Below are positions 36,398 through 52,757 of a stretch of 64,000 nucleotides of DNA, one piece after another. Below the pieces are notes generated by a model. It was not told where the DNA came from and ran no database searches. It worked only from the letters and a program-made list of their open reading frames with translations. The position numbers were made by a program, and so were the translations under genes. Origin of the DNA: Pilaira anomala (lineage: Eukaryota > Mucoromycota > Mucoromycetes > Mucorales > Mucoraceae); contig JAIXMQ010000034.1 of the NCBI GenBank assembly GCA_025716855.1, positions 186,001-250,000 of the forward strand, in the 5' to 3' direction. How positions within the stretch are numbered: position 1 is the stretch's first letter; every line of letters starts with the position of its first letter.

Positions 36398-37775
36398 TTA
36401 ACAACTTCCTGACCAAAGCAAATGGATTGCGTTTTTCGGGCCTCCAATTTTATCAGAATATTTACAATGATAAGCAATGTCAATAAAATGTTTACAACAA
36501 TTATCTTCGTCATTTAATTCATTTAATATAATTTCTACACACCGAACTGCAGGAGTAATATCTTCTTTTTGTTCCTCCCCTAATTTTGTTATATAATTTA
36601 TAGCTGAATGAAGTACACTGCTTGAACTGTATATATTTAAACCGATATCTTTAGCTAATTCGGCCAAGAAAAGGATTGCTTGCATATTGAAGGCCAGGTA
36701 ATGAAAAGGTTTTGTTCTTTTTGATTCGAACGGCTGATTTCCAGTCTTTAGATCAATTTGTTTTTGTAAATCATTCTTGAAAAAATTTATAATAACACTT
36801 GATGCTTGCACGGAAATGGGATTTAAAAAATGATCAATTGAAGCTATCTGAACGATATACCAAGTATGGATATTATTTTTAGAATTTGAAGCTTCTAATG
36901 CGACTGGGCTTGATTGCAGCCAGTGGAAGTATTCTGCGAACCAAAATTTTACAGATTGATTTAATGCATAGTAAGCATGGAATGCGTCCAAAATAGGTAA
37001 TAAATTCACAATGCGGGATAAACTAAAGTTGTCATTCTTTAGTAAAAAAAAATATTAATCAAGCACATGCAAATAGATCTTACACTCTTGAACTTATAAC
37101 ACCCTCGCCACGACCCATTTGAAATTTATTTTGAGAGCCTCTTACGAATTGTGCATAGTTCAAATTGGGATTCATTCTAGTATTTTCATTCAGAAAAAAG
37201 GTGTCTAGTAAGGACACGGCATGAATAGCATAATTTTCATTGTCAAAGAAATAGTATCCTAGACATAAATATGTGAAATTTTCAGCAAATGATTCCAATT
37301 GAGACTGGTCTTTTACACTCGTAATATCTATAATAAAATCGTTTAATGGCAACAGACATTATAGGAGTAACATCATTACCTGGATTTCTTTTCCCATCTT
37401 TCCTAATATAGTTTGTGCCTGATTCACTCTATTATTTTTTATTTTAGACTCGAGTTTGGTTATACACATATATTCCTTTCTTTAGTATTTACCGGCCACC
37501 AATATCTATTCAATTGATTTTAGTAAGGATATAAAACATTTCTAATTGATACTTTACGGTGCATAGCTCAGAAAATCACGGATATCTCCACTTGGAGCAA
37601 TATGTGGTGATGTCTTTCCAAATGTAATACTAAATGGTCCACTTTTTAAAGCTTCATTGGCAAGCTTTTCTAAACAAACATAAGCATTCTTTGTCGTTTC
37701 AGTAGGGCCAGTTTCTTTTTGTATTCTTAGTCTTTGCAGGGAAATATACTCGACTTCAGGTTTTCTTGGGCCCAT
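36398..37775 (-). CDS. alginate-lyase-family protein (5 exons, 386 aa)
   Basis: Resembles the alginate lyase fold of Pfam PF05426, alpha/alpha barrel enzymes that cleave uronate polysaccharides by beta-elimination. Exons from the 5' end: 37558-37775, 37493-37505 (a 13-nt microexon), 37380-37428, 37086-37327, 36398-37036. Family marks in order: SGDIRDFLSYAPYWWP, YIRKDGKRNP, NENTRMNPNLNYAQF, MGRGEGVISSR, then SKNNIHTWY, which carries the Asn and His expected in the active site, and RTKPFHYLAFNMQAILFLAE. The microexon supplies the YWWP motif and is needed to join the flanking exons in frame. No signal peptide is seen, so the protein would be intracellular unless an upstream exon was missed. It lies beside the sex HMG gene; I recall alginate-lyase-like neighbours being reported at Mucorales sex loci but cannot verify that. 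Substrate unknown. Confidence 0.8.
37493..37505 (-). other. 13-nt microexon of the alginate-lyase-family gene
   Basis: ATATTGGTGGCCG on the minus strand lies between AATAG and GTAAATAC. It completes the codon left by exon 1 and gives Tyr-Trp-Trp-Pro, the conserved family motif, before joining exon 3 (AGTGAATCAGGC). Skipping it shifts the frame. Confidence 0.75.
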
Positions 37776-51276: not shown

Positions 51277-52757
51277 TTAACGCATGGTAACTAATTCTTC
51301 AGCAGCAGTAGGATGAATAGCAACACAAGAATCAAAGTTGGCTTTGGTAGCACCCATACGAACAGCAACACCGAAACCTTGAAGGATTTCATCACTACCT
51401 CTACCCAAGATATGAACACCTACGACCTTTTCATCTGCACCAGCACATACTAATTTATAAGCAGTAGGTTCCTTATGTTCAAGCATAGAGAAATACATGT
51501 TTGTGAACTTGGATGTATAGGTCTTTACGTTCTCGGTACCAAACTTTTCACGGGCCTCAGGTTCAGTGTATCCAATAGTACCAGCAGTAGGATGAGAGAA
51601 GACAACGGTAGGAATATTCTCATACTCGAGTCTAGATTCCTTGAATTGTTCACCACCAAAGAGACGATCAGATAATTTACGACCGGCAGCGATAGCAACA
51701 GGAGTTAATTCAGCAACACCACATGCATCACCTAATGCATACACATTTTCTTGAGTTGTGTTTTGATAGGCGTCAGCAACAATATATCCCTTTTCTGTGA
51801 GTTGAACGTTGGCTGATTCCAAGTTGAGTTTCTTGATATTGGGTAATCTACCTACAGCCCAAACAACAGCATCTACTTCTAAAGTTTCAGGGGTTCCATC
51901 TGATTCGTATTGAATAGTGATGGGACCAGATTCGTTTTCACGAACTAAGGCGTTGACTTTAGCGTCAAAAGCGAAATTGACACCGACGGATTGCATTTCC
52001 TTTAATAAGTTGTCTTTGATGATCGGATCGAAGTTACGAAGGATTTGCTTTGTACGAGAGAAGACGGTGGTTTGAGTACCTAATGTGTTGAAAATACCTG
52101 CTAATTCAACACCAATGTATCCTGTACCGATCACAGCTACACGCTTAGGTTGATGTTCAAGGTCAAAAAATCCATCCGAATCAATACCATAATGAGCTCC
52201 AGGAATATCAGGGATTAAAGGATGACCACCTATTATTTGATGATGATGATGATGGTTAGTTTCTTCCTCTCAATAATAATCTTTAACTTTTGTTTTTTTT
52301 TTTTTTTACCTGTAGCAATTAAGATTTTCTTTGCTTGAACTTCCATAGACTCGGATTCAGATGTTTGAACACGCACAGTATTTTCGTTGACAAAGCTAGC
52401 AAAGCCTTGAATATGTTCTACCTTATCATTACCTAAGTTTCTTTCATAGATACCATTTAATCGCTTGACATAAGCATCACGCTTTTCTTTCATAAGTTCC
52501 CAGTTAAACTTGACAGGCTCTTGGTCACCAAAACCATAATGTTTAGCATCACGAAGGGCTTCAGCGACAGAAGCAGCATTCCACATGACTTTCTTGGGAA
52601 CACAACCGACATTAACACAAGTTCCACCTAAACGATGTTGAGCTTCAATAAGTGCTACTTTAGCTCCGTGAATGCCACTTGCTCTTCTGGCTGAGGCAAG
52701 CCCACCTGAGCCACCACCAATTACGAGGTAGTCATAGATAGGCTTAGTTGAGAGCAT
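51277..52757 (-). CDS. glutathione reductase, copy 2 (2 exons, 466 aa)
   Basis: Same reaction as copy 1. Exons from the 5' end: 52310-52757 and 51277-52229. FAD motif GGGSGG at about residues 14-19, redox pair Cys47/Cys52 in GGTCVNVGCVPKK, NADPH motif GTGYIGVELAGIF, catalytic His in AIHPTAAEE. The two copies match at nearly every motif and differ by conservative changes, so they are paralogues, not an assembly duplicate. The single intron lies after ILIATG, at a different place from copy 1, and each copy lacks the other's intron. The N-terminus starts directly at the FAD domain, indicating a cytosolic enzyme. I recall a glutathione reductase gene (glrA) being reported near some Mucorales sex loci; this copy is the better positional candidate, which I cannot verify. 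Confidence 0.95.

What the first reader, a model, noticed from the sequence alone, without database searches (positions are those of the whole stretch)
36398..52757. Probable Mucorales mating-type (sex) locus with extended gene neighbourhood
An HMG-box protein of the SexM/SexP class is followed 95 bp downstream by an eight-exon SF1 helicase with NFX1 fingers (the rnhA type). Established: Mucorales sex loci hold one HMG gene next to rnhA, usually with tptA on the other side. Seen here: the HMG/helicase core, with an alginate-lyase-family gene instead of tptA, and a fungal transcription factor and a glutathione reductase beyond the helicase. I recall alginate lyase and glutathione reductase genes being reported near some Mucorales sex loci, but cannot confirm it. 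If so, this is an ancestral-like or rearranged arrangement worth comparing.
Basis: partly seen in the sequence, partly recalled or inferred. Interest (0 to 1): 0.85.

Follow-up and report, generated by a model that had tools for sequence, protein, structure and literature searches.

The report
Plus mating-type locus of Pilaira
This stretch is the plus mating-type (sex) locus of a mould, probably Pilaira anomala, with a gene order already described for related moulds; one usual neighbour, a sugar-phosphate transporter gene, is missing from it.

Summary
Window 36398-52757 holds an alginate-lyase-family gene (agl, minus), sexP (one exon, 318 aa), an rnhA-type helicase (eight exons, 1274 aa, ATG 95 bp after the sexP stop), a fungal-type transcription factor (sagA position) and a glutathione reductase (glrA, minus). 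The HMG protein is SexP, the (+) type: the Mucorales hits that bear a sex name are SexP or 'sex plus' (five of 69 hits), and the published SexP-promoter motif lies 83 bp before its ATG. The assembly is probably Pilaira anomala. The order is known: agl/sexP/rnhA without tptA in Mucor saturninus and M. mucedo (PMC7928374), sagA and glrA beside the sex locus in Rhizopus microsporus and others (PMC5982828). agl does not replace tptA; it normally lies beyond it. Added here: tptA looks lost, not moved. The only close tptA relative in the assembly falls in a separate paralogue clade and lies about 11 kb from a paralogue of the sagA-type gene on another contig, a possible relic of a duplicated sex-locus neighbourhood. 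SexP also has a conserved N-terminal domain without a Pfam family over cut-off. Verdict: ordinary new member.

The parts
36398..37775 (-). agl, alginate-lyase-family gene, 5 exons (37775-37558, 37505-37493, 37428-37380, 37327-37084, 37022-36398), 382 aa
   Evidence: model; PF05426 E 2e-49
37776..41217 (.). 3.4 kb spacer where relatives carry tptA; no tptA relic detected
   Evidence: tblastn of 37800-41200 with 8 TPT proteins, E up to 10: no TPT hit; repeats, nothing notable
41120..41134 (+). SexP-promoter motif GATCNNNNANCCAAT (GATCGCTCATCCAAT), 83 bp before the sexP ATG
   Evidence: motif published in PMC5587739 (passages); only match in window; genome rate gives 3.5e-4 expected in 264 bp on this strand
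41218..42174 (+). sexP, single exon, 318 aa HMG-box protein, (+) mating-type determinant
41287..41502 (+). SexP N-terminal domain (residues about 24-95), confident model: three strands, helix, two strands, helix; no Pfam family over cut-off
   Evidence: AlphaFold2; Pfam on 35 SexP; no confident fold match
41557..41760 (+). HMG box of SexP (residues 114-181)
42270..46608 (+). rnhA-type SF1 RNA helicase, 8 exons (42270-42331, 42408-43068, 43131-43851, 43930-45098, 45169-45296, 45366-45969, 46046-46276, 46360-46608), 1274 aa
48543..51119 (+). fungal-specific transcription factor gene in the sagA position, 858 aa
   Evidence: PF04082; paralogue C213:592-2742; the name sagA rests on position (PMC5982828, passages)
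51277..52757 (-). glrA, glutathione reductase, 2 exons (52757-52310, 52229-51277), 466 aa
11896..13360 (+). second glutathione reductase gene, 63% and 76% identical to glrA in its two parts, about 38 kb away on the other side of the sex locus
   Evidence: (its first part alone: best family glutathione-disulfide reductase)

Best explanation
The region is the (+) allele of the Mucorales sex locus in a strain that is probably Pilaira anomala, in the tptA-less order agl - sexP - rnhA - sagA-type factor - glrA. SexP is an HMG-box transcription factor that gives the strain its plus identity and allows the trisporic-acid mating programme; the single gene is expected to be exchanged for sexM in minus strains. 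rnhA is a Sad-3/Hrr1-type helicase of RNA silencing that sits next to it, its start only 95 bp from sexP. tptA was lost; its paralogue tptB, which may cover its job, remains elsewhere. Shown here: gene models, SexP class, promoter motif, one rnhA-type gene, no tptA found in the assembly. Inferred from relatives: mating-type function, expression, role of rnhA, species name, and that tptB covers for tptA.
For: SexP: one-sequence search gives 13 proteins, itself included, best 71% Helicostylum pulchrum, 70% Thamnidium elegans, 60% Mucor saturninus among the named; profile search gives 69, among them five named SexP or 'sex plus' (M. irregularis, R. microsporus, P. nitens, P. blakesleeanus, Syzygites) and none named SexM in the names as shown; the tree groups it with Thamnidium and Helicostylum (100/99) and with M. 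saturninus and M. irregularis sexP (95/93). Intron-less and 318 aa: SexP of M. irregularis 933 bp without intron, SexM 579 bp; table values 326 for (+) and 249 for (-) in M. circinelloides. Motif. Helicase: next best genomic match 32%. Order known in relatives. Species: protein 100% identical to a P. anomala record whose longest contig has 87,518 bases, the length of C213. tptA.
Against: No opposite mating-type strain was available, so the limits of the sex-specific region are unknown. No SexM reference was obtained, so a second sex gene elsewhere is not excluded: the genome has 23 HMG matches, this one included; the best other one matches SexP at 27% over 82 residues. In the HMG tree the named SexP proteins are not one clade: the two Phycomyces proteins fall outside, deep forks are weak, and two boxes of one gene of the same contig (C154:5738-6415), with under a third of the columns filled, fall among SexP. 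The helicase, agl and sagA-type gene were named by domain and position, not by comparison with the named genes of relatives. The NFX1 finger was not recovered. The assembly is in 225 contigs of unstated completeness, so absence of tptA could be a gap.
Confidence: 0.94

Rival explanations
1. An ordinary (non-mating) HMG gene that happens to lie beside an SF1 helicase.
For: The genome has 23 HMG-box matches, this one included.
Against: Similarity to SexP proteins runs over nearly the full length, including the N-terminal domain; SexP promoter motif; order agl/sex/rnhA/sagA/glrA as published piecewise.
Confidence: 0.02
2. A homothallic or two-locus species, with sexM at another site.
For: No SexM reference could be fetched, so sexM elsewhere was not tested directly; homothallic Syzygites carries both at different places (PMC3834313, passages).
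Against: Only one rnhA-type gene; among the contigs listed only C154 has both an HMG match and an agl or rnhA-type match.
Confidence: 0.1
3. tptA was not lost but relocated: the C213 transporter gene is the former sex-linked tptA.
For: It is the only close tptA relative found in the genome.
Against: It lies in a 14-row clade (100/100) apart from the 11-row clade (97/96) that holds three sex-linked tptA; Blakeslea, Gilbertella and Backusella have one gene in each clade; holding it with the 11 rows costs 226 log units, AU p 1e-50.
Confidence: 0.02

Closest known systems
Sex locus of Mucor saturninus and Mucor mucedo (agl/sexP/rnhA; PMC7928374, passages)
   Same: agl, sexP and rnhA in this order without tptA; M. 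saturninus HMG protein INT47_001946 60% identical.
   Different: Other species; whether sagA and glrA follow there was not seen.
Sex locus of Thamnidium elegans (agl/tptA/sex/rnhA; PMC7928374, passages)
   Same: Close SexP (70%), agl and rnhA.
   Different: Keeps tptA between agl and the sex gene.
Sex locus of Rhizopus microsporus (PMC5982828, passages)
   Same: No tptA beside the sex gene; transcription factor gene sagA and glutathione reductase gene glrA adjacent.
   Different: Distant SexP (31%); agl not mentioned in the passages seen.
Sex locus of Mucor circinelloides (PMC3116813, passages)
   Same: HMG gene with rnhA on one side.
   Different: tptA flanks the other side; compact sex-specific region (1,495-1,811 bp in three forms).

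Membership tests
Mucorales sex locus, (+) allele | HMG-box protein of the SexP class | tested here: met
   no SexM sequence was in the comparison
Mucorales sex locus, (+) allele | rnhA helicase next to the sex gene | tested here: met
   by domains, position and copy number; PMC5384783 passages place rnhA first in the 3' flank. Not compared with a named RnhA sequence; its NF-X1 finger was not recovered.
Mucorales sex locus, (+) allele | tptA on the other side (usual, not universal) | tested here: not met
   not a requirement: absent also in M. saturninus, M. mucedo and R. microsporus
Mucorales sex locus, (+) allele | agl on the tptA side; sagA and glrA near rnhA (in some species) | tested here: met
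   order compared; agl by family, sagA by position only
Mucorales sex locus, (+) allele | SexP-promoter motif GATCxxxxAxCCAAT upstream of the start codon | tested here: met
Mucorales sex locus, (+) allele | Sequence divergent between (+) and (-) strains, flanks alike | not testable with these tools
   no minus strain held
Mucorales sex locus, (+) allele | Needed for mating as plus type | not testable with these tools
   needs deletion and crosses
Single sex gene per genome (heterothallic) | No sexM elsewhere in the genome | tested here: inconclusive
   23 HMG matches, the 22 others not SexP-like beyond the box where one search scored them; no SexM reference available

The most novel reading that the evidence does not exclude
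The whole neighbourhood of the sex locus was once duplicated in an ancestor of the Mucoraceae and kin. The copy lost its HMG gene and its helicase but kept tptB and a paralogue of the sagA-type factor, which in Pilaira still lie about 11 kb apart on contig C213. The paralogue tptB would then have made tptA dispensable, so that tptA could drop out of the sex locus in Pilaira, M. saturninus and M. mucedo.
Probability: 0.35. Interest if true: 0.45.

Novelty: new member of a known kind. Interest (0 to 1): 0.27.

Why it matters
It adds a (+) sex locus from a genus for which the listings of two searches of the held library showed no sex-locus paper, and suggests that the missing tptA is a true loss with a surviving paralogue. 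If the C213 block is a relic of a duplicated sex region, it gives a way to date that duplication and to ask why flanking genes leave the sex locus.

Full report
Check of the observation. The HMG gene is one exon, 41218-42174 (+), 318 aa, with an HMG box at residues 114-181. The helicase has eight exons over 42270-46608 and 1274 aa without a stop, with ZNFX1, AAA_11 and AAA_12 domains; 95 bp part it from the HMG gene. Its NFX1 fingers were not recovered by Pfam. An alginate-lyase-family gene with four introns (37775-36398, minus, 382 aa), a fungal-type transcription factor (48543-51119) and a glutathione reductase (52757-51277, minus; NCBIfam glutathione-disulfide reductase over its cut-off) complete the stretch. 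Introns were placed by hand, without transcripts.

Which organism. A transporter protein from contig C213 of the same assembly is 100% identical, over 94% of my model, to a record named Pilaira anomala whose longest contig has 87,518 bases, the length of C213. P. anomala is in the Mucoraceae, order Mucorales. The name is an inference from this one match; the genome itself is unnamed. Seven papers of the held library name P. anomala; by title, six deal with beef ageing and one with pet isolates (listing only). A search with Pilaira and the sex-locus terms listed 20 of 42 papers, none of which holds 'Pilaira'.

Which HMG protein. The one-sequence search gives 13 proteins, itself included; the named ones are Helicostylum pulchrum (71%), Thamnidium elegans (70%), Mucor saturninus (60%), Parasitella (41%) and Cokeromyces (41%). 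The M. saturninus protein is from the species whose single sex gene is reported as sexP (PMC7928374, passages). Profile search: 69 proteins; five bear names SexP or 'sex plus' and none bears SexM in the names as shown; below the Mucorales proteins come, mostly, ascomycete MAT1-2 and other HMG proteins. In a tree of 33 rows the window protein joins Helicostylum and Thamnidium (100/99), and with M. saturninus and M. irregularis sexP a five-row group (95/93). Against a clean picture: in that tree SexP as a whole is not one clade, the two Phycomyces proteins fall outside, and two boxes of one other HMG gene of this genome fall inside with few columns. Length and lack of introns fit SexP: in print SexP of M. 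irregularis has 933 bp and no intron, SexM 579 bp (PMC5587739, passages); a table gives 326 for (+) and 249 for (-) in M. circinelloides, which I take as amino acids (PMC3000332, passages).

A promoter test. PMC5587739 reports a motif GATCxxxxAxCCAAT shared by SexP promoters of Mucorales, 73 bp before the start codon in M. irregularis, and no conserved stretch in SexM promoters. I searched for this pattern after reading it. The window holds one match, 41120-41134 on the plus strand, 83 bp before the sexP ATG (0.11 expected in the whole window by shuffling). The genome has 45 matches on one strand and 47 on the other in 34.25 Mb, so 3.5e-4 are expected in 264 bp on the coding strand.

The helicase. 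The rnhA-type gene is the only one of its kind in this genome; the next best match is 32% over part of the protein. I had no named RnhA sequence to compare. In Mucor circinelloides, RnhA is reported as the orthologue of N. crassa SAD-3 and S. pombe Hrr1, is needed for RNAi epimutation, is raised during mating, and is the first gene of the 3' flank of the sex locus; in some forms its promoter lies in the sex-specific region (PMC5384783, passages; PMC3116813, passages). With 95 bp between the genes here, the rnhA promoter must overlap the end of sexP or the short gap; that it is sex-specific is an inference.

The order is known. PMC7928374 gives agl/tptA/sex/rnhA for Thamnidium elegans and M. 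plumbeus, agl/tptA/sexP for Umbelopsis, and agl/sexP/rnhA without tptA for M. saturninus, like M. mucedo. PMC5982828 reports sagA (transcription factors) and glrA (glutathione reductase) beside the sex locus of R. microsporus and other Mucorales, no tptA in R. microsporus, and infers that this is the ancestral structure. These papers cite Schulz 2016, Idnurm 2011, Lee and Idnurm 2017 and Wetzel 2012, which I did not see. The five-gene order as a whole, in one species, I did not see in print; its parts I did.

Where is tptA. In four species a transporter and SexP have the same longest-contig length in the database, which I read as linkage: Phycomyces nitens, Mucor ambiguus, Blakeslea, Choanephora. 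With the M. ambiguus protein as query the Pilaira genome gives only C213 (62 and 68% in two exons) and a 27% match on C194. In a tree of 47 transporters (of 120 listed, of 2,319 hits) the C213 gene lies in a 14-row clade (100/100) with Thamnidium and M. saturninus genes. The linked genes of M. ambiguus, Blakeslea and Choanephora lie in another, 11-row clade (97/96); the fourth, P. nitens, lies outside both. Blakeslea, Gilbertella and Backusella have one member in each clade. Forcing the C213 gene into the 11-row clade is rejected. A Helicostylum gene on a long branch sits in the 11-row clade and is rejected from the other (AU p 0.003). The tests were named after the tree was seen. No trace of tptA lies in the 3.4 kb spacer. 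So tptA was probably lost in this lineage, if the assembly is complete there. An unlinked TPT gene in Phycomyces was noted before (PMC2866331, passages).

A possible relic. The best paralogue of the sagA-type factor lies on the same contig C213 (592-2742, 54% identity; the next in the genome is 26%), about 11 kb from the transporter gene (14251-15733). The chance that a given gene falls that close is about 7e-4. I found no HMG or rnhA relic in the 28 kb of C213 read, and apart from the factor no further protein match between that stretch and the window. A duplicated sex-locus neighbourhood that lost its sex gene is the simplest cause, but two genes in one genome are thin evidence, and linkage in other species was not tested. 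A search for papers on such a duplication gave three papers; I saw passages of two of them (PMC5982828; PMC2866331) and no such report there; the third (PMC11258239) was not opened.

Verdict.

Noticed in passing
window 11896-13360 (+) and 51277-52757 (-): The two closest glutathione reductase genes of the genome both lie in this window, about 38 kb apart on either side of the sex locus, in opposite orientation (63-76% identity; other matches are 37% or less).
   Followed up: partly
G000 C213:592-3318 and 14251-15733 (L030, L029): Paralogue of the sagA-type factor and the tptB transporter close together; possible relic of a duplicated sex-locus neighbourhood.
   Followed up: partly
G000 C213:10441-13479: Inverted repeat between these two genes (84 and 98% protein identity of small ORFs, one pair ending a 485-aa ORF), possibly a mobile element.
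   Followed up: no
whole genome G000: GATCNNNNANCCAAT occurs 92 times, its reversed control pattern 16 times; may reflect base-word bias or a wider promoter element.
   Followed up: no
G000 C154:5738-6415 (L003, L005): A 591-aa open frame with two HMG boxes lies on the same contig, about 220 kb from sexP; it falls among SexP in the tree, but with few columns.
   Followed up: partly
G000 C181:143310-148672 (L033, L034): Two tandem paralogues of agl, without other sex-locus genes matched on that contig.
   Followed up: partly
window 57910-58308 (-) and 58724-60304 (+): Two neighbouring WrbA-type NAD(P)H:quinone oxidoreductase genes on opposite strands (78% identity over 129 aa; NCBIfam flav_wrbA over cut-off for both); the second frame has a long Thr/Ala-rich tail.
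   Followed up: partly
SexP residues 24-95, window 41287-41502: Conserved SexP N-terminal domain without a Pfam family over cut-off.
   Followed up: partly
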